From positions 62,001 to 126,000 of the forward strand of contig NZ_SOHA01000034.1 of the NCBI RefSeq assembly GCF_004403065.1: 64,000 bases of DNA. The letters run 5' to 3'. This document shows, piece after piece, positions 1,168 to 28,465 of this stretch. Each line of letters begins with the position of its first letter. Position 1 is the stretch's first letter. The position numbers and the translations under genes are program-made. This stretch comes from Cryobacterium cryoconiti. GTDB lineage: Bacteria > Actinomycetota > Actinomycetes > Actinomycetales > Microbacteriaceae. The notes beneath the pieces are model-generated. The model did not search any database. It was not told the DNA's origin and was given only the letters and a program-made list of their open reading frames with translations.

Positions 1168-3084
1168 TCAGCCGCGCACCTGCGCCAGCCCGAAGGAGCG
1201 GGCGCCGCGCCGCCTCGCGACGGTCGCGTAGGAGGCGAGCACGCTCACCAGCGCGAAGATCACCAGGATGGCCGCGGGCCCTCCGGCGCCGCCGGCGCTG
1301 CCGGAGACGATGGCCTGCATGCCCTCCACGGCCCAGGTCAGCGGCAGGTACGGGCTGATCAGCTGGAACGGCGCGGACACCAGCTCGATCGGGTAGAGCC
1401 CGCCCACCGCCGTGAGCTGCAATGCGAGCAGCACCAGGGAGACCACGATGCCGACCCGGCCGAAGGCGGCCGTGAGGAAGTGGTGCACCGCCGCGAACAC
1501 GAAGGCGAGGAACACCGCGAAGGCCAGCGTGGCCGGCAGCAGCGACCACGCCACCCCCAGGGTGCTGTGCAGCAGCAGGACCACGACCGCGGCCTGGGCG
1601 GCGGCGATTCCGAACGCGCGACCGAGACTGCGCACTACGAGGCCGCCAGTGGACGCGGTCGATGCCAGGGCGATGGCGGACAGCGGCTTCATGACCAGGA
1701 AGATGGCCAGTGCACCGATCCAGAGCCCGATCGGCACGAAGACCATCCCGATCACCGGGCCGATCGACGCGAACGCGTTGTCACGCTCCGCGCTGATGCC
1801 CACGGGTTCGGAGACCACCGCCGAGGTCAGGGCCGGGTCGGTGTCGGTGAGCGGGGCCGCACCGTCGGCGCCCTCCTGCAGACCGCTGGCCAGGTCGGCC
1901 GCACCCGTTTCGAGCTGGCGGGCGCCCGCGGCGGCATCCGTTGTCCCGGTGGCCAGCTGCGAGAGGCCGGTGGAGATTCCCGCGACCCCGGTGGCGAGGT
2001 CGCCGGCCCCGCCGCGCAGCTCGCCGCCGCCGGCCGCGAGCAGGCTCGCACCGGTCGCGCTCTGAGACACACCGTCGAGCACGCCCTGGATGCCGGGACC
2101 GGCCTGGCTGATGCCGGGGCTCTGCGCCGCGAGCGCGTCCAGTCCGCCCTGAAGGCGCAGCAGGGCCGGCGCGTAGTCGGCGACCCGGGGGTCGTTCTGC
2201 ATGGCGGCGTTGAGCTGCCGGAACCCGTCGGCGCTGGCCTGCACCCCGGCGGCGTAGGCCGGCAGACCGGTGGCGAGCGGGGCCAGCCCGGCCGCACCCG
2301 TGTTCAGCTGGGTCAGGCCGTCGCTGAGGCCCGTGACGCCCTGCGTGTACTCGGTCACGCCGGAGGAGAATGTGGCGGCGCCGGTCGCGGCCGTCGAGGC
2401 CCCGGTGGCCGCGGCGGCCGTGCCGCCGGCCAGCGAATCCAGTCCGGTGGCCACGCCGGAGACCCCGGTCGAAACCTGAGCGGCGCCATCCGCCGCCTGG
2501 GTCAGGGACTCCCCCAGCACGGCCAGGTTCGTGTACAGCCCGTTGAGGTACTGCGACGTGATCTCACGGCCGAAGACACCCGACATGGCCGTGCCCACCG
2601 ACTGCGCCACCGATCCGGCCAGGAACGAGTGCGCGTCATCGGTGCGGATGTCCAGATCCGCCTGCACGGGCGCGGCGCCGCCCAGCGAGGTCACCGATGA
2701 GGAGAAGTCTGCCGGGATCGTGAGAACGGCGTAGGCCTCGCCGGAGGCCAGGGCGGCCGCGGCATCCGTGGTGTTGGAGATCGTCCAGTCGAAACCGGTG
2801 GCCTCGGATCCGTCACCGGAGGGCTTGGTGAGCTCGGTCACCAGCAGTCGCCCGGCGAGCACCGGTTGCTCGGTGCCGTCGGGGAGGGTTGTGGTGACGA
2901 TTTCGTCGTTGTTGACGACGATCGCCGGCAGGGTGTCCACGCGCTGGTCAGCGGTCGCCAAGGCGCCGGCGAAGAGGCCGGCCACCGCGAGCGGCACCAC
3001 GATCAGACCGGCCAGGAGAGCCCCGAAGGTCCATCGGCGCTCCCCGGGCGTGCGGCTGAAGAGTTTCTCGAGCCTGGTGCTCAT
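1168..3084 (-). CDS. YhgE/Pip family membrane protein
   Basis: The 638-residue protein has one N-terminal membrane segment (about 20-42), a long extracytoplasmic region, and five or six C-terminal membrane segments (about 430-630) with an ABC-2-permease-like character. Residues about 195-400 carry short Ala-Thr-Gly-rich repeats (LATG/AATG-like motifs at roughly heptad spacing), typical of the X-X-G heptad region of YhgE/Pip proteins, which predicts a long rod. Relatives include the phage infection protein Pip and ESX/YukD-associated YhgE. It overlaps the upstream MMPL gene by four bases, so the two are co-translated and probably form one export complex under the TetR regulator. Confidence 0.85.
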   Translation of the reverse strand: MSTRLEKLFSRTPGERRWTFGALLAGLIVVPLAVAGLFAGALATADQRVDTLPAIVVNNDEIVTTTLPDGTEQPVLAGRLLVTELTKPSGDGSEATGFDWTISNTTDAAAALASGEAYAVLTIPADFSSSVTSLGGAAPVQADLDIRTDDAHSFLAGSVAQSVGTAMSGVFGREITSQYLNGLYTNLAVLGESLTQAADGAAQVSTGVSGVATGLDSLAGGTAAAATGASTAATGAATFSSGVTEYTQGVTGLSDGLTQLNTGAAGLAPLATGLPAYAAGVQASADGFRQLNAAMQNDPRVADYAPALLRLQGGLDALAAQSPGISQAGPGIQGVLDGVSQSATGASLLAAGGGELRGGAGDLATGVAGISTGLSQLATGTTDAAAGARQLETGAADLASGLQEGADGAAPLTDTDPALTSAVVSEPVGISAERDNAFASIGPVIGMVFVPIGLWIGALAIFLVMKPLSAIALASTASTGGLVVRSLGRAFGIAAAQAAVVVLLLHSTLGVAWSLLPATLAFAVFLAFVFAAVHHFLTAAFGRVGIVVSLVLLALQLTAVGGLYPIELVSAPFQLISPYLPLTWAVEGMQAIVSGSAGGAGGPAAILVIFALVSVLASYATVARRRGARSFGLAQVRG

Positions 3085-6011
3085 CGCTGCAGGGCCTTTC
3101 GGTCAGAAGGGGCTCCGTCGAGGGAGCGTCGGTCACGGGAGTCGAGGTGGAGGGTCTGCACGGGCCGGTCACCGCGGTAGGCCGGTGCGGTATCCGGGAA
3201 GGACGCTGCGCCGAGGATCAGGGTGGTCGATGCCGGGGCGAGGGTCGCCAGCACCTGCGCGAGGTCGCGCCCCGTCGGGTCGACGGGCAACCCCTCGCCC
3301 AGGTCGACGATGACGACGCCCGGGTTCTCGGTGAGCGCCGCAGCCACGAGCACGGCGGCGCGATCGAGGGCGGAGAGCGACGACACGGTCGTGCCGGACC
3401 GGATCGGGCTGGTCGCCGGAGCGGCCCGGCCGCTGCCGACCGCCACATTCAGGCGTCCGACCCACCCGGAGAGCAAGGAACGACGGGACGCAGCCCGGTA
3501 CCACGGATGCGCCAGGTCCAGCCGTTCGGCCAGCAACTCCCCCACGGTCAGGCCGTTGTCCCGGCTGTCGCCCACGTCGGCGAGCGCCACCATCCGGAGG
3601 GCGCGAGCGCGTTCGGACGGCAGCGGTGCACCCTGCACCTGGAGGCGGCCGAACACCGGGTCAAGCCGGCCGGCCAGTGTGGCGGCGATGACGCGGCGGT
3701 GCGTGGCGGAGCCGGTCATCAGGACGACCGTGCCGGAATCGATGGCGAGGTCGAGCGGTCCGAACGGGCTCTCCGGCAGACCGAAGACGGTCCCCTCTGC
3801 CGTGATGGCGTGCGTCTGGCCGGTGGCCCACTCCTTGTCGGCCAGGTGCTGGCGCAGACCCTCACCCTCGATGTCGACGTTGGGCAGGATGCGGGAGAGC
3901 CATCGCGGCAACCACCAGGCGGCGTCGCCGGCGAGAGCCATTGCGGCCGGGACCAGCGTCATCCGCACCAGGAACGCGTCGAGGAAGACTCCGACGGCGA
4001 GGGCGAATGCGATGCCCTTGATCGCCCCGGTGCCCTCGGGCACGAAGGCGAAGAAGACGAAGAACATGATCAGGGCCGCGGCCGTCACCACCCGGGCGGC
4101 GTGGGAGAACCCGTGCACGACGGATTCGCGGGCCAGGCCGGTCTTCACGAACTCCTCCCTCATGCCGGAGACGAGGAACACCTCGTAGTCCATCGCGAGG
4201 CCGAAGAGCACGGCCATCAGCAGGATGGGCAGGAAGCTCAGGATCGGCCCGGGGGTCTCGACCCCGAGCAGGTCGGAGAACCAGCCCCACTGGAAGATCA
4301 TCACGGTCGCACCGATCGATGCGGCCACCGACAAAAGGAAGCCGAGGGCCGCCTTGATCGGCACGAAGATCGAGCGGAACACCATGGTCAGCAGGATGAT
4401 CGAGAGCCCCACCACGATCAGCGCGAATGGCACGAGCGCGTTGCTGAGTCGGTTGGAGATGTCGATCCCCACCGCGGTCGCGCCGGTCACGGCTATGGGG
4501 GTGCCCAGGTCGTCGTCGATCGAGGGTGCGAGATCTCGGATGGCCTGCACGAGAGCCTTGGTCTCGGGCGCATTCGGCGCGCTTTCCGGCATGACCTGGA
4601 TGATGGCGGTGTCGACGGTCGGGTTCGGTGTTCCCTTGCCGACGAACGCGACGTCGGGAAGGGTTCGCAGTTCCGCGCCGATGGTGTCGAGGTCGGCGAA
4701 GATATCCGTTGTCTGGGTGATGTCGACGACGACGATGAGCGGACCGTTGTACCCAGGCCCGAAGCCCTCTTCGAGCATGGTGAACGCCTCCCGCTGCGTC
4801 GACCCGGCCGGCTCGGACGCCCCGTCGGGCAGGTTCAGGTCGAGGCTGAGCGCCGGGATCGCCAGAGTGCCGAGCACTCCCACCACCAGGAGAACGGCCA
4901 CGATCGGCGCCCGGAGTACAAGATTCACCCAGCGGTGGCCGAGCGTGGGCCGGCCGGTGTCGGGTCGGGTGGCGCGGCGGTGCGCGCGACTGCCTGCCTT
5001 GGGGGTGAGGCGCCCCTTGGCCAGTCCGAGAACGGCGGGGAGTAGTGTGACGGCCACGAAGATCGAGATCAGCACGGCGAAGGCGGCCCCGAGCCCCATC
5101 ACGCTGAGGAACGGGATTCCGACCACGAGCAGCCCGAGCAGGGCGATGATCACGGTGATCCCGGCGAAGACGACGGCGCTGCCCGCGGTGGCCACGGCCG
5201 TGGCCGCCGAGTCGTGCGGTTCGACGCCGTTGGCGAGCTGCGTTCGGTGCCGCGACAGGATGAAGAGCGCGTAGTCGATGCCGACGGCGAGGCCGAGCAT
5301 CAGGGCGAGCATGGGCGCCGTGCTGGAGACGGGCACGAAGGCGGAGATCACGGTGATGCCGCCGATGGCAACCCCCACCCCGATCAGGGCCATCAGCAGC
5401 GGCATCCCGGCGGACACGAGCGAGCCGAAGGTGATCAGCAGAACCACGCCGGCAAAAATCAGGCCGAGCACCTCGGAAACGGTGATGCCGAAGGTGTTGT
5501 CCGCGAACACCTGGCCGCCGAAGGCGACCTTCAGGCCCGCGCCCTCGGCGATCTCCCGGGTCCCGGTCACATCGTCGAGGGTCTCCGCGGTGACGTCGGT
5601 CGACAGGCCCGACAGCTGCACCTGGCTGAACGCGCTCTCCGTGTCGTCTGAGATGGCGCCTGAGGCGTATTCGTCGAAGGGTGTCAGCACCGAGTCGACG
5701 CCGGCAACATCCGCCAGCTCGGCGGCCATGTCGACGATGGCCGTGCGGTAGGGCTCGTCGTTGACGGATGCCCCGTCCGGCGCCGTGTAGACGACCTGCA
5801 CCGCAGCGCCCGCCGCCTGGGGGAACACCTCCCCGAGCTTGTCGATGGAGTCCTGTGATTCCGTGCCGGGAATCGCGTAGGACTCCTGGGTCTGGCCGCC
5901 GAGCGCGACCCCGACGCCGAGGATCCCGACCAGCAGTAGCGCCCAGATGCCGATCACCAGGCCCGCGCGGCGGTAGGCGAAGTGGCCGATTCGGTAGAGG
6001 AGGGTTGCCAT
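3081..6011 (-). CDS. MMPL/RND family exporter fused to a degenerate ABC-ATPase-like domain
   Basis: Residues 1-700 are a standard MMPL pump: two halves, each one membrane helix, a large extracytoplasmic loop and five more helices, with the RND proton-relay motifs GIDYALF (near 244) and AMDYEVF (near 605). Residues about 735-976 are extra. Their order of motifs follows an ABC ATPase: a strand-glycine-loop segment near 757-775 (LMTGSATHRR where GxxGxGKS/T is expected), SSLSALDRA near 876 at the signature position, and GVVIVDLGEG near 896 at the Walker B position. The P-loop lysine and the Walker B DE pair are missing, so ATP hydrolysis is unlikely. MMPL pumps move lipids, drugs or small molecules using the proton gradient. 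The gene lies five bases after the TetR gene and overlaps the YhgE gene. Confidence 0.88.
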   Translation of the reverse strand: MATLLYRIGHFAYRRAGLVIGIWALLLVGILGVGVALGGQTQESYAIPGTESQDSIDKLGEVFPQAAGAAVQVVYTAPDGASVNDEPYRTAIVDMAAELADVAGVDSVLTPFDEYASGAISDDTESAFSQVQLSGLSTDVTAETLDDVTGTREIAEGAGLKVAFGGQVFADNTFGITVSEVLGLIFAGVVLLITFGSLVSAGMPLLMALIGVGVAIGGITVISAFVPVSSTAPMLALMLGLAVGIDYALFILSRHRTQLANGVEPHDSAATAVATAGSAVVFAGITVIIALLGLLVVGIPFLSVMGLGAAFAVLISIFVAVTLLPAVLGLAKGRLTPKAGSRAHRRATRPDTGRPTLGHRWVNLVLRAPIVAVLLVVGVLGTLAIPALSLDLNLPDGASEPAGSTQREAFTMLEEGFGPGYNGPLIVVVDITQTTDIFADLDTIGAELRTLPDVAFVGKGTPNPTVDTAIIQVMPESAPNAPETKALVQAIRDLAPSIDDDLGTPIAVTGATAVGIDISNRLSNALVPFALIVVGLSIILLTMVFRSIFVPIKAALGFLLSVAASIGATVMIFQWGWFSDLLGVETPGPILSFLPILLMAVLFGLAMDYEVFLVSGMREEFVKTGLARESVVHGFSHAARVVTAAALIMFFVFFAFVPEGTGAIKGIAFALAVGVFLDAFLVRMTLVPAAMALAGDAAWWLPRWLSRILPNVDIEGEGLRQHLADKEWATGQTHAITAEGTVFGLPESPFGPLDLAIDSGTVVLMTGSATHRRVIAATLAGRLDPVFGRLQVQGAPLPSERARALRMVALADVGDSRDNGLTVGELLAERLDLAHPWYRAASRRSLLSGWVGRLNVAVGSGRAAPATSPIRSGTTVSSLSALDRAAVLVAAALTENPGVVIVDLGEGLPVDPTGRDLAQVLATLAPASTTLILGAASFPDTAPAYRGDRPVQTLHLDSRDRRSLDGAPSDRKALQR

Positions 6012-6931: not shown

Positions 6932-7023
6932 CTCGACTCTCGCCCGGCGTGTCAGCCGGGTTCGATGCTCGGGCAGCGACACACTGGGAAGTTCACGGGC
7001 ACGATTGCCGAAAGGGGCTCCGG

Positions 7024-7419
7024 ATGTTTGGTCGTCGACGTCGCGTCGTACCGGTCGCACCGGTCACTCCCCCGCCTGTTCCCGAGCTCAGCGATGCTCA
7101 GGTCTTTGAGCTCCTGCACACCCAGATCGCCCGACTGGTCGGCACGCAGGGTCAATGGACCCTCGTTCCCCGCAGCGCCGACGACACGGACGTGATCTTC
7201 CACGGTCTCAAGGCGCACCAGATCGCGTCGTCTCTGGCAGCAGTGCTGCGCGCCGAAACCTCTGTGCTGCGCGGCGAGGTCATCGCCGAACCCACGTCCC
7301 TGCCCTTCACTCCGGCCCCCATCTCTGTGTGGGCCGAACCGGAGATCGTCATGCCTGCAGTCACGCTGCCGCGCTTCTCCGCCGATTCTTCGAAGGGCCA
7401 CGCCCGGCTCGTCGCCTGA
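7024..7419 (+). CDS. hypothetical protein with helical core
   Basis: The start is the ATG after an AAAGGGG ribosome site, giving 131 residues. It begins with a basic run (MFGRRRR) and a Pro-rich stretch. A predicted mixed alpha/beta core spans about residues 25-95, and a low-complexity tail follows. There is no signal peptide or membrane segment. Repeat sequence begins soon after its stop. No function can be assigned. Confidence 0.6.
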   Translation: MFGRRRRVVPVAPVTPPPVPELSDAQVFELLHTQIARLVGTQGQWTLVPRSADDTDVIFHGLKAHQIASSLAAVLRAETSVLRGEVIAEPTSLPFTPAPISVWAEPEIVMPAVTLPRFSADSSKGHARLVA

Positions 7420-7471
7420 CCTCTGCCGCTCCCTCAACCCGGCGAGCCACCCTCCGGAGGTTCGCCTCCCC

Positions 7472-7899
7472 GGTGGTCGAGCCTGTCGAGACCCGGCGAG
7501 CCACCCGCCCGAGGCTCCCCTCCCCGGTGGTCGAGCCTGTCGAGACCCGGCGAGCCACCCGCCCGAGGCTCCCCTCCCCGGTGGTCGAGCCTGTCGAGAC
7601 CCGGCGCCGAACCCGCCCGAGGCTCCCACGACGGTGGTCGAGCCTGTCGAGACCCGGTGGTCGAGCCTGTCGAGACCCGGTGGTCGAGCCTGTCGAGACC
7701 CGGTGGTCGAGCCTGTCGAGACCCGGCAACCCGCCCTCCAGAGGCTCCCACGACGGTGGTCGAGCCTGTCGAGACCCGGGGCCTGTCGAGACCCGGGGAC
7801 CCACCCTCCAGAGACTCCCGCGACGGCGGTCGAGCCTGTCGAGACCCGGCAACCCGCCCTCCAGAGACTCCCGCGACGGTGGTCGAGCCTGTCGAGACC
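7472..7899 (+). repeat. Array of ten full and one partial 23-bp repeats downstream of the first DUF222-HNH gene
   Basis: The core is GGTCGAGCCTGTCGAGACC, usually preceded by GGT and followed by CGG. Full copies begin at 7472, 7526, 7580, 7633, 7656, 7679, 7702, 7755, 7825 and 7878; a half copy lies at 7781. The first three sit in a 54-bp unit, the next four are head to tail at exactly 23 bp, and the rest are spaced by a partly conserved GC-rich filler. All copies point the same way. The array fills the space between 7420 and the end of the HNH gene at 7918. The fillers are related to each other, so this is not a CRISPR. Confidence 0.95.
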
Positions 7900-7917
7900 A
7901 AGGACCAGGACCAGCCC

Positions 7918-9384
7918 CTAAAGCCCCGCCCGCTTGCTCGGCAGCGCAATCACGGCCTGCTTCGGGTCAACCTCGACGGGTGGTTTGAGCCAGTAGTCGT
8001 TTCCGGTGCGGATGATCGTCCAGTGCTGGTTGTGCAGGAGCAGGTGGTGCGGGTGGCAGAGGAGTATTCCGTCGGCAAGGTCGGAGTAGCCGTTTTCGGC
8101 GAGCCATTCCTTAATGTGGTGCGCTTCGGTCCACGCGGGTGATCGATCGCAATCGACCCACCGGCAGCCCCCGTCGCGGACCCCCATCGCGGCGCGCTGC
8201 GCTTCGGTGAAGAGGCGTTGGTCACGGCCGACGTTGATGATCTGGCCGGTGTCGTCGATGTGGATGCCGCGGGTTCCGGTGTCGCAGAGCAGCCGGTCGA
8301 TGGTCTCCTGCGAGACCGGGACCGGGACCGGGCTACCCTCGATCTGCCCGTGACCGGCTGCTTCGCGGGTTTCGGTTGCTTCGGCGGCCTCCGGGGTGCC
8401 TGGCTGGCCCGGCTTCAGGGCCTTCTCGGTCACGATGACCCGAACCGCGGGGCGGCGCCCGCCGAAGACCCGGCCCTGGTCGGCCTCACCGGCAATCTTC
8501 AGCAACTGCACCAGGGCATCGGCGGCGATCTGCTCCGTGGTGCGGGGGTCGTCCTGCACACGTTTCGCCCAGGCGGCCTTCTCTTTGTCGACGAAACGCA
8601 CCCCGCCACGGCGAGGGCTGGTCACGGAGTCAAACACGGAAAGGACGAATTCGCCGTCTTCGGGAGCGAAGAGCCCGTTCAGGCGCACCTTGCCGTTGCC
8701 GAGCCGGCAGACCCGCAGGAACCGATCGTCGTGGGCCTGCTTCTCGCGGGCGGCGATGCCGGCCTCGTCGAGCTGGTCGCGCAGGCGCCGTGCGAGTTTG
8801 AAGACCTGGTCGACATTCAGTGACGCGGCCTCGACGAGGAGGGATTCGAGGGCGGTACCGAGCCTCTCGGCGGTGACCGCCGCGTCGAGCTGGCCCAAAC
8901 CCGCGCGGATCGACTCGGCCGCATCGACCGAGAGGGTGCCGTCGGTGACCGCCCGTGCGATCGGCGCCTGCCACGGCACCTTCGCCACGAAAGCGGCGAC
9001 GAGACCGGGATCGCCGTCGGGTGCGTCCACGGCAGCCTCGACCAGTTTCTCCGCCGCCTCGGCATCGGCCATCATCGTGCCGACCGCAACGAGCTTGAAC
9101 GCGTCGTTCTTGGTTGAGCCGGTCACCGTCTGGATCAGCGCCTCGGGCGAGAGGAAGCCTTGTTGGGCGGCGAGACCGGAGTGGCCGAGCTCGGGCCGGG
9201 AGCGACGGGCGATGATTGCGGCCATCCACGCGGACCGGGTGTCGAGGAGCCGCCGGGCTGCCGCGATCTGCCTCTGACCGGCCAGCACTTCGGCATCGGC
9301 GAGTGCCTCATAGTCGGCGCAGGACGAGCCCAGGCGAGCGACGGCATCCGTCGCCGTTCTGAGGTCGTCTGCGGTGGTGGTCAT
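7918..9384 (-). CDS. DUF222 domain-containing HNH endonuclease, copy A
   Basis: The 488-residue protein has an N-terminal helical DUF222 region (about 10-330) and a C-terminal HNH nuclease domain. The HNH core begins at CRWVDCDR (near 405), followed by the catalytic pair AHHIKEW and then LCHPHHLLLH. Such proteins are common and multicopy in high-GC actinobacteria, but their role is not established. A second gene in this window (27005-28465) encodes a protein that matches at about nine in ten residues by eye. Both genes have the same promoter, and both are bordered by the same repeat family. Confidence 0.93.
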   Translation of the reverse strand: MTTTADDLRTATDAVARLGSSCADYEALADAEVLAGQRQIAAARRLLDTRSAWMAAIIARRSRPELGHSGLAAQQGFLSPEALIQTVTGSTKNDAFKLVAVGTMMADAEAAEKLVEAAVDAPDGDPGLVAAFVAKVPWQAPIARAVTDGTLSVDAAESIRAGLGQLDAAVTAERLGTALESLLVEAASLNVDQVFKLARRLRDQLDEAGIAAREKQAHDDRFLRVCRLGNGKVRLNGLFAPEDGEFVLSVFDSVTSPRRGGVRFVDKEKAAWAKRVQDDPRTTEQIAADALVQLLKIAGEADQGRVFGGRRPAVRVIVTEKALKPGQPGTPEAAEATETREAAGHGQIEGSPVPVPVSQETIDRLLCDTGTRGIHIDDTGQIINVGRDQRLFTEAQRAAMGVRDGGCRWVDCDRSPAWTEAHHIKEWLAENGYSDLADGILLCHPHHLLLHNQHWTIIRTGNDYWLKPPVEVDPKQAVIALPSKRAGL

Positions 9385-9390
9385 GCGTCG

Positions 9391-9419
9391 AGAATACCAG
9401 AGTTAGTAGGTGTAGTCGA
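9391..9419 (-). promoter_or_regulatory. Predicted leaderless promoter of DUF222-HNH copy A
   Basis: On the minus strand, TCGACT, a 17-base spacer and TATTCT form a sigma-70-like promoter. Only six bases separate the -10 box from the ATG, so transcription would begin at or next to the start codon. The same arrangement is conserved upstream of copy B. Confidence 0.6.
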
Positions 9420-9466
9420 GAGTCTATCACCAAAATTTAAACGAATATCGAAGTCGTGTTCTACGA

Positions 9467-9724
9467 GGTCTCGACAAGCTCGACCACCGAAGGAGGGCCG
9501 CCGGGTCTCGACAAGCTCGACCACCGAAGGAGGGCCGCCGGGTCTCGACAAGCTCGACCACCGAAGGCGGGCCGCCGGTCTCGACAAGCTCGACCACCGA
9601 AGGCGGGCCGCCGGGTCTCGACAAGCTCGACCACCGAAGGAGGGCCGCCAGGTCTCGACAAGCTCGACCACCGAAGGAGGGCCGCCGGGTCTCGACAGGC
9701 TCGATCACCGGAGGAGGGCCGTCG
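9467..9724 (-). repeat. Seven-copy 37-bp tandem array upstream of the first DUF222-HNH gene
   Basis: Copies begin at 9467, 9504, 9541, 9577, 9614, 9651 and 9688. Each has the core GGTCTCGACAAGCTCGACC plus a filler close to ACCGAAGGAGGGCCGCCG. The core is the reverse complement of the one in the 7472-7899 array (with TT for CC), so the two arrays form large inverted flanks around the HNH gene. The last copy is divergent (AGGCTCGATC). The array fills the space between the HNH gene promoter and the next gene. Confidence 0.95.
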
Positions 9725-9786
9725 AAGGCTGCGAACCCCCGCGGCGGCGCAGGGCGGCGGTTGCCCCGGCGGCGAGGACCCCTACT

Positions 9787-10488
9787 ATGGGCGCCATGGT
9801 CGCCCATTCCGACAAACCAGTACTGCTGTTCGCCACCACGGCGGAGTGGGCGGCGTGGCTGGAAAGCAATCTCAGGCACGACGGCATCCGGTTGCAGCTG
9901 CGCAAGAAGAACTCATCCGCGCCGGGGATCACCTATCCGGAGGCGCTCGAAGTGGCCCTGTGCTTCGGCTGGATCGACGGGCAGTCGGGCGCCCTCGACG
10001 CCGACTATTTCCTGCAGGGATTCACCCCGCGGCGGGCCCGGAGCCTGTGGTCCCAGCGCAACCGGGATTCGGCCCTAACCCTCATCGCCGAGGGGCGGAT
10101 GCAGCCGGCCGGGTTGGCGGAGGTCGACCGCGCGAAGGCCGACGGCCGCTGGGAGGCGGCATACAGCCAGAAGGAGAGTCCCGTTCCCGATGACCTCCAG
10201 GCCGCCCTCGATGCCAACCCGGCTGCCGCAGAATTCTTCCGGACGCTCACAGCCCAGAACCGGTTCGCGATCCTGTTCCGCCTCGGCAGTGTGAAACGGC
10301 CGAAGACTCGCGCCGCGAAGATTACGACCTACATCGACATGCTTGCGCGCGGGGAGACGCTCTACCCGCAGAAACCCCGGCCAGCGGCCACCCCGACCTC
10401 GGCCGAGGGCGGGAATGGGAATGGGAATGGGAATGGGAATGGGAATGGGAACGGGGACGGAGACGGGGACGGAGACGGGCCGCTATAG
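9787..10488 (+). CDS. YdeI/OmpD-associated family protein with a repeat-encoded Gly-Asn/Gly-Asp tail
   Basis: The 233-residue protein resembles the YdeI family: an N-terminal segment with WAAWLESN, the motif EVALCFGWIDGQ near residue 60, a basic stretch (FTPRRARSLWSQRN), and a C-terminal YdhG/DUF1801-like helical part ending near ITTYIDMLARG. I chose the ATG at 9787 because GAGGA lies seven bases upstream; the ATG at 9796 is also possible. The tail is seven GN and four GD dipeptides encoded by eleven hexanucleotides. Relatives have been linked to bacteriocin or antimicrobial-peptide resistance, but biochemical function is unclear. Confidence 0.8.
   Translation: MGAMVAHSDKPVLLFATTAEWAAWLESNLRHDGIRLQLRKKNSSAPGITYPEALEVALCFGWIDGQSGALDADYFLQGFTPRRARSLWSQRNRDSALTLIAEGRMQPAGLAEVDRAKADGRWEAAYSQKESPVPDDLQAALDANPAAAEFFRTLTAQNRFAILFRLGSVKRPKTRAAKITTYIDMLARGETLYPQKPRPAATPTSAEGGNGNGNGNGNGNGNGDGDGDGDGPL
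10411..10476 (+). repeat. Hexanucleotide microsatellite inside the YdeI-like gene
   Basis: Eleven six-base units run in frame: six GGGAAT, one GGGAAC, then alternating GGGGAC and GGAGAC (two of each). They encode Gly-Asn and Gly-Asp. Unit gain or loss would change tail length without a frameshift. Confidence 0.95.
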
Positions 10489-26830: not shown

Positions 26831-26913
26831 CCGTTCTCCTCACGTCTCGTGTCTCGACTGGCATCGTTCGTGCCACCTCGGTGGCACCGCAGACAGAATA
26901 GCCCCGGCCGATC

Positions 26914-26985
26914 GTCGAGCCCGTCGAGACCCACCCGGCGGTCAAGCCCGTCGAGACCCACCCGGCGGTCAAGCCCGTCGAGACC
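26914..26985 (+). repeat. Three repeats downstream of the second DUF222-HNH gene
   Basis: Three copies of GTCGAGCCCGTCGAGAC or GTCAAGCCCGTCGAGACC, about 27 bp apart, lie between the DinB-like gene start and the end of the second HNH gene. They belong to the family seen at 7472-7899 and have the same orientation relative to their HNH gene. Confidence 0.9.
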
Positions 26986-27004: not shown

Positions 27005-28465
27005 CTACAGCGTCGCCCGCTTGCTCGGCAGCGCGATGAGGATCTGCTCCGGGTCGACCTCGACCGGTGGCCGGAGCCAGTAGTCGTTGCCGGTGCGGAT
27101 GATGCTCCAGTGCTGGTTGTGCAGCAACAGGTGGTGCGGGTGACAGAGCAGCACTCCGTCGGCGAGGTCGGTGTAGCCGTTGTCTTTCAACCATTCGTTG
27201 ATGTGATGCGCTTCGGTCCACGCGGGCGATCTATCGCAGTCGACCCACCGGCAGCCCCCGTCGCGGACCCCCATCGCGGCGCGCTGCGCTTCGGTGAAGA
27301 GTCGTTGGTCACGGCCGACGTTGATGATCTGTCCGGTGTCGTCAACCTGGATGCCGCGGGTTCCGGTGTCGCAGAGCAGCCGGTCGATGGTTTCCTGCGA
27401 GATGGGAACGGGGTTTCCCTCGATCTGCCCGTGGGCGGCGGCTTCGCGGGTTTCGGTTGCTTCGGCGGTCTCCGGGGCGGCCGGCTGGCCCGGCGTCAGC
27501 GCCTTTTCGGTCACGATGACCCGAACCGCGGGGCGGCGCCCGCCGAAGACCCGGCCCTGGTCGGCCTCACCGGCAATCTTCAGCAACTGCACCAGGGCGT
27601 CGGCGGCGATCTGCTCGGTGCTGCGCGGGTCGTCCTGCACACGTTTGGCCCAGGCGGCCTTCTCCTTGTCGACGAAGCGTACCCCGCCGCGGCGGGGGCT
27701 GGTCACGGAGTCGAAAGTCGAGAGCACGAACTCGCCGTCTTCGGGGGCGAAGAGGCCGTGCAAGCGCACCTTGCCGTTTCCCAGCCGGTAGACCCGCAGG
27801 AACCGGTCGTCGTGGGCCTGCTTCTCGCGGGCGGCGATGCCGGCCTCGTCGAGCTGGTCACGGAGGCGGCGGGCGAGCTTGAAGACCTGATCTGCGTTCA
27901 GTGACGCGGCCTCGACGAGGAGGGAATCGAGGGCGGTGCCGAGCTTGTCGGCGGTGACCGCGGCATCGATCTCGCCGAGGCCGGAACGGATCGACTCGGC
28001 CGCATCGACCGAGAGAGTGCCCTCGGTGACGGCCCGGGCGATCGGCGCCTGCCAGGGCACCTTCGCCTCGAAAGCGGCGACGAGACCGGGATCCGCGTCG
28101 GGCGACTCCAGGGCCGCCTCGACGAGCTTCTCCGCCGCTTCAGCATCGGCCATCATCGTGCCGACCGCGACGAGCTTGAACGCGTCGTTCTTCGTCGACC
28201 CGGTCACCGTCTGGATCAGTGCCTCGGGCGAGAGGAACCCCTGCTGGGCGGCCAGGCCGGAGTGGCCGAGCTCGGGCCGGGAGCGACGGGCGATGGTCGC
28301 GGCCATCCACGCCGAGCGGGTGTCGAGAAGCCGCCGGGCTGCCGCGATCTGCCTCTGACCGGCCAGCACTTCGGCGTCGGGAAGAGCCTCGTAGTCGGCG
28401 CAGGAGGAGCCCAGGCGGGCGACGGCATCCGTTGCCTGTCTGAGGTCGTCTGCGGTGGTGGTCAT
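27005..28465 (-). CDS. DUF222 domain-containing HNH endonuclease, copy B
   Basis: The 486-residue protein is colinear with copy A (7918-9384). By eye, roughly 42 positions differ, plus a two-residue deletion near 370. The HNH core (CRWVDCDR, EAHHINEW, LCHPHHLLLH) is intact. Changes are spread along the chain with no stops, so both copies look functional. Promoter and 5' flank are also shared, which points to duplication of a whole cassette rather than of the coding sequence alone. Confidence 0.93.
   Translation of the reverse strand: MTTTADDLRQATDAVARLGSSCADYEALPDAEVLAGQRQIAAARRLLDTRSAWMAATIARRSRPELGHSGLAAQQGFLSPEALIQTVTGSTKNDAFKLVAVGTMMADAEAAEKLVEAALESPDADPGLVAAFEAKVPWQAPIARAVTEGTLSVDAAESIRSGLGEIDAAVTADKLGTALDSLLVEAASLNADQVFKLARRLRDQLDEAGIAAREKQAHDDRFLRVYRLGNGKVRLHGLFAPEDGEFVLSTFDSVTSPRRGGVRFVDKEKAAWAKRVQDDPRSTEQIAADALVQLLKIAGEADQGRVFGGRRPAVRVIVTEKALTPGQPAAPETAEATETREAAAHGQIEGNPVPISQETIDRLLCDTGTRGIQVDDTGQIINVGRDQRLFTEAQRAAMGVRDGGCRWVDCDRSPAWTEAHHINEWLKDNGYTDLADGVLLCHPHHLLLHNQHWSIIRTGNDYWLRPPVEVDPEQILIALPSKRATL

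What the first reader, a model, noticed from the sequence alone, without database searches (positions are those of the whole stretch)
7472..9724. DUF222-HNH gene flanked by inverted arrays of one repeat family
The nuclease gene lies between a ten-copy array (7472-7899) and a seven-copy array (9467-9724) whose cores are reverse complements of each other. This gives the whole module about 2.2-kb inverted-flank architecture, like a REPIN/RAYT or selfish-nuclease cassette. DUF222-HNH proteins are abundant and multicopy in actinobacteria, with no settled function. A nuclease that recognises, copies or is kept by these repeats would be a new system.
Basis: partly seen in the sequence, partly recalled or inferred. 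Interest (0 to 1): 0.85.

Follow-up and report, generated by a model that had tools for sequence, protein, structure and literature searches.

The report
HNH nuclease flanked by palindrome arrays
A bacterial nuclease gene of unknown function sits between inward-pointing arrays of one short palindrome, and many of its relatives do the same, which suggests a gene-plus-repeat selfish module whose job can now be tested.

Summary
The window is from a draft Cryobacterium genome. Its repeat is an imperfect palindrome: core GAGCYYGTCRA with complementary arms. In 861 kb sampled, 46 of 72 copies lie within 700 bp of ten DUF222 genes (1.6% of the bases); without the window, 30 of 56. No one of 10,000 random gene sets reaches that. 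Around the 29 DUF222 matches, 63 of 63 upstream and 62 of 62 downstream copies keep one inverted orientation. In another genus (G071) the same layout has other arms: 70 of 70 upstream copies obey. Thirteen paralogs recombine, are under purifying selection, and resemble each other more than the genes at the same sites in other species.

Against: repeats occur without DUF222 in some genomes; downstream orientation has exceptions elsewhere; 19 DUF222 genes from 16 other genera lack the motif; binding and cutting are untested.

Best reading: a REPtron-like selfish module built on an HNH nuclease instead of a Y1 transposase.

The parts
7475..7899 (+). array downstream of the gene: ten exact copies of GGTCGAGCCTGTCGAGACC (spacings 23 to 70 nt) plus a truncated copy
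7918..9384 (-). DUF222-HNH gene, 488 aa (clade A, 13 full copies in the genome)
   Evidence: ORF; PF02720 E 3.3e-15; paralogs
8020..8178 (-). HNH-like C-terminal motif, residues 403-455; C407, C412, H423, C443, H447 invariant in 24 diverse proteins (Pfam HNH itself does not ring for this copy; the motif reading is partly from recall)
9385..9466 (-). about 82 bp leader, similar in the clade-A copies
   Evidence: by eye
9467..9706 (-). array upstream of the gene: six copies GGTCGAGCTTGTCGAGACC and one GATCGAGCCTGTCGAGACC, spacing 36-37 nt
26913..26985 (+). three degenerate copies downstream of the second DUF222 gene
27005..28465 (-). second DUF222-HNH gene (clade A); the same site is occupied in C. 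cheniae, C. breve and sp. M96

Best explanation
The unit is a selfish gene-plus-palindrome module, organised like a REPtron but with a DUF222-HNH nuclease. The protein recognises the palindrome (constant core GAGCYYGTCRA, interchangeable complementary arms) and cuts at or near it; repair copies palindromes into arrays and to other intergenic sites, and lets module copies overwrite each other by gene conversion. SHOWN: association, fixed orientation in this genome, complementary arms of several types around a constant core, conserved HNH residues, purifying selection, recombination among paralogs, sequence clustering by genome and not by site. INFERRED: recognition, cleavage, copying in trans, and mobility of the whole unit.
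For: Enrichment: 46 of 72 copies within 700 bp of ten DUF222 genes, 0 of 10,000 random draws reach it; 30 of 56 without the window. Orientation: own genome 63/63 upstream, 62/62 downstream; 23 loci of six other Cryobacterium species 6/6 and 26/26; G071 70/70 upstream. Own clades that share only 23-29% protein identity with the window protein follow it too. Other genes show no such rule: 3' ends 3 with, 8 against, 2 mixed; 5' ends 2 with. Arms stay complementary: GGTC..GACC 51, GGTT..AACC 19, mixed GGTC..AACC or GGTT..GACC 0, of 114 core matches; the reversed core has 16. Other arm types: CCCT/AGGG and CGCT/AGCG, GATT/AATC. In 23 downstream units of 53 nt, allowing 5 mismatches in the palindrome, the mean majority-base frequency is 0.998 in the palindrome and 0.905 in the spacer. 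Recombination: PHI 0.494 against 0.617, 0 of 1000 permutations; median dN/dS 0.104. Same-site orthologs (77.2-84.4%) are further away than every own paralog (87.4-93.2%) in 9 of 9 comparisons over six sites; 13 own copies form one clade, support 100/99.9. In relatives, 6 of 7 gaps without a detected gene trace (three sites) hold no repeat.
Against: No biochemical test. Repeats without a DUF222 match in G046 and G117. In complete genomes G160 and G165 only about 4 of 98 and 3 of 41 copies lie near DUF222 matches (by eye). 10 of 29 own matches and 19 of 19 genes from 16 other genera have none. Downstream exceptions: 5 of 25 copies in 29 genus loci, 13 of 51 in G071, all of the CGCT arm type, and 2 of 2 in G063, overlapping the gene ends. 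No target-site duplication was defined. Clean single insertions were not proven; 4 of 11 gaps scanned in relatives hold gene remnants, so loss of an older copy is a real alternative at such sites.
Confidence: 0.5

Rival explanations
1. The palindromes are an independent REP-like family, spread by another enzyme or by host recombination. They pile up beside DUF222 genes because founder cassettes happened to carry inverted flanks and multiplied with them, or because these flanks are dispensable DNA.
For: Repeats occur without DUF222 (G046, G117), near ordinary genes, and are scattered in G160. None of 20 own loci fetched around arrays away from DUF222 genes has a DUF222 match.
Against: The same orientation holds in own clades only 23-29% identical to the window protein and in another genus with other arms. 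In relatives 6 of 7 gaps without a detected gene trace lack the repeats too.
Confidence: 0.27
2. The palindromes are regulatory: an operator or insulator upstream (nearest copies often about 80-150 nt before the start codon) and a transcript end or mRNA-stabilising hairpin downstream.
For: Upstream orientation is the strictest part of the rule, without an exception in the sets counted; many own arrays lie at 3' ends or between convergent genes.
Against: No terminator-like or promoter-like site by simple consensus in window 7000-10200. Arrays of up to ten copies are not needed for an operator; 4 of 13 clade-A copies have no upstream array (by eye).
Confidence: 0.12
3. The nuclease acts on something else (for example invading DNA), and the repeats only serve as homology that lets host recombination convert and shuffle the copies.
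For: Recombination among copies is clear; REP13E12 loci in M. tuberculosis show frequent gene conversion without known function (preprint PMC13061034, passages read).
Against: PADLOC gives no match for the window protein (weak restriction-type matches for two other clades, L007 and L003). Homology alone does not explain the fixed inverted orientation or the different arms per genus.
Confidence: 0.11

Closest known systems
REPtrons (RAYT transposase genes flanked by REP palindromes)
   Same: Gene flanked by palindromes in inverted orientation; palindromes also dispersed between genes; palindromic arms kept by complementary changes (PMC2817692 passages).
   Different: Protein is DUF222-HNH, not a Y1 HUH transposase; no GTAG tag in the consensus; long tandem arrays; 29 gene matches in this genome and 25 in G071; concerted evolution.
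REP13E12 / 13E12 family of mycobacteria (DUF222-HNH)
   Same: DUF222/HNH repeated loci with frequent gene conversion among copies (PMC13061034 passages; PMC10589994 passages).
   Different: No flanking palindrome system in the passages read; not tested here in Mycobacterium.
CGTC-tagged REPs without a known enzyme
   Same: REP palindromes that apparently lack a dedicated transposase (PMC3733652 abstract and passages).
   Different: Mainly alphaproteobacteria according to that abstract; whether the present repeats fit the CGTC tag was not examined.
Free-standing HNH homing endonucleases
   Same: HNH nuclease that would spread by cutting and recombination (recalled; only listings seen).
   Different: No intron or intein was noticed and none was searched for; repeats flank the gene in inverted, not direct, orientation.

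Membership tests
REPtron (RAYT + REP) | gene flanked by REP palindromes in inverted orientation | tested here: met
   own genome 63/63 upstream and 62/62 downstream copies, at 19 of 29 matches; G071 70/70 upstream
REPtron (RAYT + REP) | Y1 HUH tyrosine transposase | tested here: not met
   Pfam finds only DUF222 in the window protein and no transposase
REPtron (RAYT + REP) | GTAG-type tag next to the palindrome | tested here: not met
   consensus of 125 copies is CGGTGGTCGAGCYTGTCGAGACCCGG, no GTAG
REPtron (RAYT + REP) | palindromes dispersed away from the gene in many copies | tested here: met
   282 copies at up to 1 mismatch; 26 of 72 sample copies are not near DUF222
REPtron (RAYT + REP) | enzyme acts on its palindrome | not testable with these tools
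   needs purified protein
13E12 / DUF222-HNH family | PF02720 domain above the curated cut-off | tested here: met
   56.6 bits against cut-off 24.4
13E12 / DUF222-HNH family | HNH nuclease motif at the C-terminus | tested here: met
   C407, C412, H423, C443, H447 invariant in 24 proteins; Pfam HNH rings for L007 and L003 but not for the window protein itself
13E12 / DUF222-HNH family | multicopy with gene conversion | tested here: met
   29 matches, fragments included; PHI test on 13 copies
insertion sequence with target-site duplication | short direct duplication at each insertion | tested here: inconclusive
   junctions against relatives inspected by eye; flanks too diverged or rearranged to define one
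homing endonuclease element | cleavage of an empty allele | not testable with these tools
   needs a cleavage assay

The most novel reading that the evidence does not exclude
DUF222-HNH proteins of some Microbacteriaceae are a second, unrelated class of REP-associated enzyme: an HNH nuclease that reads a palindrome with a fixed core and interchangeable arms, and drives both palindrome dispersal and homing-like overwriting of its own gene copies. This would give the widespread DUF222 family, REP13E12 of mycobacteria included, a first defined substrate.
Probability: 0.35. Interest if true: 0.92.

Novelty: new variant of a known kind. Interest (0 to 1): 0.78.

Why it matters
DUF222-HNH genes are highly repeated in many actinobacteria (75 of 120 genomes drawn from this family have at least one DUF222 match) and have no settled function that I know of. 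A specific, conserved DNA partner turns that open question into a simple binding and cutting test. If true, REP-like palindromes have been paired with an enzyme at least twice by unrelated proteins.

Tried and rejected
Rejected or empty: Rfam in window 7000-10200 gave nothing up to E 0.1. The promoter and terminator scan gave nothing. Single units fold only weakly as single-stranded DNA: z -1.04, -0.65, -1.03, 0.34 and 0.68, so a strong hairpin is not supported by folding alone. The AlphaFold model is of low to medium quality (mean pLDDT 67.8); the best Foldseek hits are ParB/Noc DNA-binding domains but not significant (E 0.52 at best). The PDB sequence search gave nothing. A strict numerical link of repeat and gene numbers over 57 genomes was not found (Spearman 0.27, p 0.044). 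Generality over the family was not found: 19 genes from 19 genomes of 16 genera, high Pfam scorers and not picked from amplified clades, have no core with arms. One of them (L232, G037) has three upstream units with similar outer arms and another, longer loop, which I did not count. A repeat-flanked other nuclease in G046 was looked for by a crude HNH pattern in ten regions and by Pfam in four neighbouring proteins, and not found. A first measure of palindrome against spacer conservation (17 units) was circular, since exact palindromes defined the units; it was redone with a loose definition and the result held. Of 29 site comparisons, 11 gaps were scanned for repeats and gene traces; two 2.9-kb gaps at the L013 site (L124, L125) were left. 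In G071 one gene above the cut-off (L223 with L224) was left out and has no copies. Five of the 29 genus loci are the same genes as five of the 23 named loci (L094 and L070, L095 and L076, L097 and L074, L099 and L075, L100 and L081), so these two counts overlap. Paper searches for DUF222 with repeats, for DUF222 alone, for six motif strings, and for REP or HNH with Microbacteriaceae or Cryobacterium listed no paper that I recognised as describing this system; most hits were seen as listings only.

Full report
What is there. The window lies in a draft genome of 3,433,919 bases in 46 contigs. The reported array of ten (7475-7899) and array of seven (9467-9706) flank a DUF222 gene at 7918-9384 on the minus strand. 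The two arrays are in opposite orientation and differ by one base in the core.

Association. PF02720 has 29 matches in the genome, some of them fragments at contig ends. The repeat has 282 copies at up to one mismatch; the reversed control has none. The sample is contigs C29 and C43 whole, the first 400 kb of C31, and the window: 861,455 bases. With the motif 'core GAGCYYGTCRA plus four complementary arm bases', 72 copies occur there; 46 lie within 700 bp of the ten DUF222 genes, whose flanks make up 1.6% of the bases. Ten random genes of at least 300 aa collect 2.23 on average and 33 at most in 10,000 draws. Because the window was chosen for this feature, I repeated it without the window: 30 of 56 copies near eight genes, random mean 1.58, maximum 22.

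Orientation. Around the 29 own matches, with at least three complementary arm pairs and within 700 bp, all 63 upstream copies read '+' and all 62 downstream copies read '-' relative to the gene; 9 matches have both sides, 6 only downstream, 4 only upstream, 10 none. In 23 loci of six named Cryobacterium species it is 6 of 6 and 26 of 26; 9 of the 23 have none. In 29 further loci, one per genome of the genus, upstream is 5 of 5 and downstream 20 with and 5 against; 19 of 29 have none. Five of these 29 are the same genes as five of the 23. Own clades that follow the rule include some with only 23-29% identity to the window protein. Copies share ancestry within a clade, so they are not independent events. 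Ordinary genes in the own sample show no rule: at 3' ends 3 with, 8 against and 2 mixed, at 5' ends 2 with.

A second genus with other arms. G071 is another genus of the family with a two-contig genome. Its repeat GGTCCCTGAGCYYGTCGAAGGGAC has 306 copies, control 0. Of 21 DUF222 genes above the cut-off, 20 were examined and one: 17 have upstream copies, all 70 copies in the right sense (within about 1 kb). Downstream, all 38 copies with CCCT/AGGG arms (one of them TCCT/AGGG) obey, and 13 copies of a third arm type, CGCT/AGCG, all point the other way. Of the first 100 listed '+' copies, 37 lie within 1 kb left of a DUF222 match and 0 within 1 kb right (counted by eye). Thus the core stays and the arms change as complementary pairs; GATT/AATC occurs in G046. 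In the own sample, 51 of 114 core matches carry GGTC..GACC, 19 GGTT..AACC, and none a mixture of the two; the reversed core has 16 matches. In 23 downstream units of 53 nt from eight loci, with up to five mismatches allowed, the palindrome is nearly constant and the spacer is not (mean majority 0.998 against 0.905).

History of the copies. Of thirteen full clade-A genes, the other twelve are 89-94% identical in protein to the window copy, and all are 87.4-93.2% identical in DNA to each other. Synonymous divergence is high (mean dS 0.38), median dN/dS is 0.104, and they recombine: PHI 0.494 against 0.617 in permutations, 0 of 1000 as low. Several of their sites are occupied in other species. 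Yet the 13 own copies form one clade with support 100/99.9 in a tree of 32 genes, and in 9 of 9 same-site comparisons over six sites the ortholog (77.2-84.4%) is further away than every own paralog. Gene conversion within the genome explains this best; repeated occupation of the same sites is not excluded. In relatives, 11 gaps at six sites (L013, L014, L015, L016, L018, L023) were scanned. Four hold DUF222 remnants, and two of these hold degenerate repeats. Of the seven without a tblastn trace (sites L014, L015, L018), six have no repeat copy at up to three mismatches; one (L129) has one degenerate copy, and by eye its sequence resembles a gene end. The cleanest is the L018 site in C. breve, 8 bp between the aligned flanks. 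An element of Cryobacterium sp. HLT2-28 (L092) is absent from the own genome between two aligned flanks.

Protein. The window protein matches DUF222 only; HNH models ring for L007 and L003 of other clades. In 24 diverse members C407, C412, H423, C443 and H447 are invariant, which fits an HNH nuclease (motif partly from recall). The model has mean pLDDT 67.8, and weak, non-significant fold hits to ParB/Noc DNA-binding domains are a lead only.

Limits and counter-evidence. The repeat occurs in 25 of 120 genomes of the family, the own genome among them, some without a DUF222 match (G046 36 copies, G117 14 copies), and in 3 of 117 other genomes of a class-wide draw. In complete Cryobacterium genomes G160 and G165 few copies are near DUF222 matches, about 4 of 98 and 3 of 41 by eye, those few in the right sense. 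In G063, three DUF222 genes in regions that I picked around repeats have upstream copies in the right sense, but two copies at the gene ends are against the rule. Nineteen DUF222 genes from 19 genomes of 16 other genera have no motif; one (G037) has upstream units with similar outer arms and a longer loop. Twenty own loci around other arrays have no DUF222 match, and ten neighbouring proteins scanned there are mostly ordinary enzymes and transport proteins. So the palindrome is a wider REP-like family, and the tie to DUF222 is a property of some lineages.

Interpretation. The anatomy is that of a REPtron: gene, inverted palindromes on both sides, dispersed copies, compensating arms (compare PMC2817692, passages). 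The enzyme is unrelated to RAYTs by Pfam. I therefore claim that it works like a REPtron, not that it is one. The steps of recognition and cutting are inferred. The main rival is hitchhiking of an independent repeat family; it is weakened by the same orientation in distant clades and by the second genus with other arms, but not excluded.

Noticed in passing
L014, L018 (own genome), L094, L104, L109, L192: Short tandem repeats of other kinds (for example GGTCTTT and GGTCTCT units, GCAAAGACGCAA-like units in C. breve) lie just after the stop codon of several DUF222 genes.
   Followed up: no
L199-L202 (G011), downstream of DUF222 genes: Four copies of a 438-aa DUF222 clade share one long hairpin directly after the stop codon, of another sequence than the palindromes described.
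   Followed up: no
L183-L190 (G165) downstream, and L232 (G037) upstream of DUF222 genes: Longer hairpins with arms of the GGTCGAG../..TCGAGACC or GGTTGAG../..TCGAAACC kind lie beside several DUF222 genes (by eye).
   Followed up: partly
own contigs C13, C18, C40, C42: These contigs begin inside or at DUF222 genes, so the draft assembly breaks at such copies, and array lengths may be collapsed.
   Followed up: no
window 9797-10488: ORF beside the module ends in a low-complexity run of Gly-Asn and Gly-Asp pairs.
   Followed up: no
window 3081-6011: ORF of 976 aa that by eye looks like an MMPL-type transporter with a long extra C-terminal part.
   Followed up: no
G160:C1: Close pairs of palindromes in opposite orientation, several with one GGTC and one GGTT arm type, resembling REPIN or BIME doublets (by eye).
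   Followed up: no
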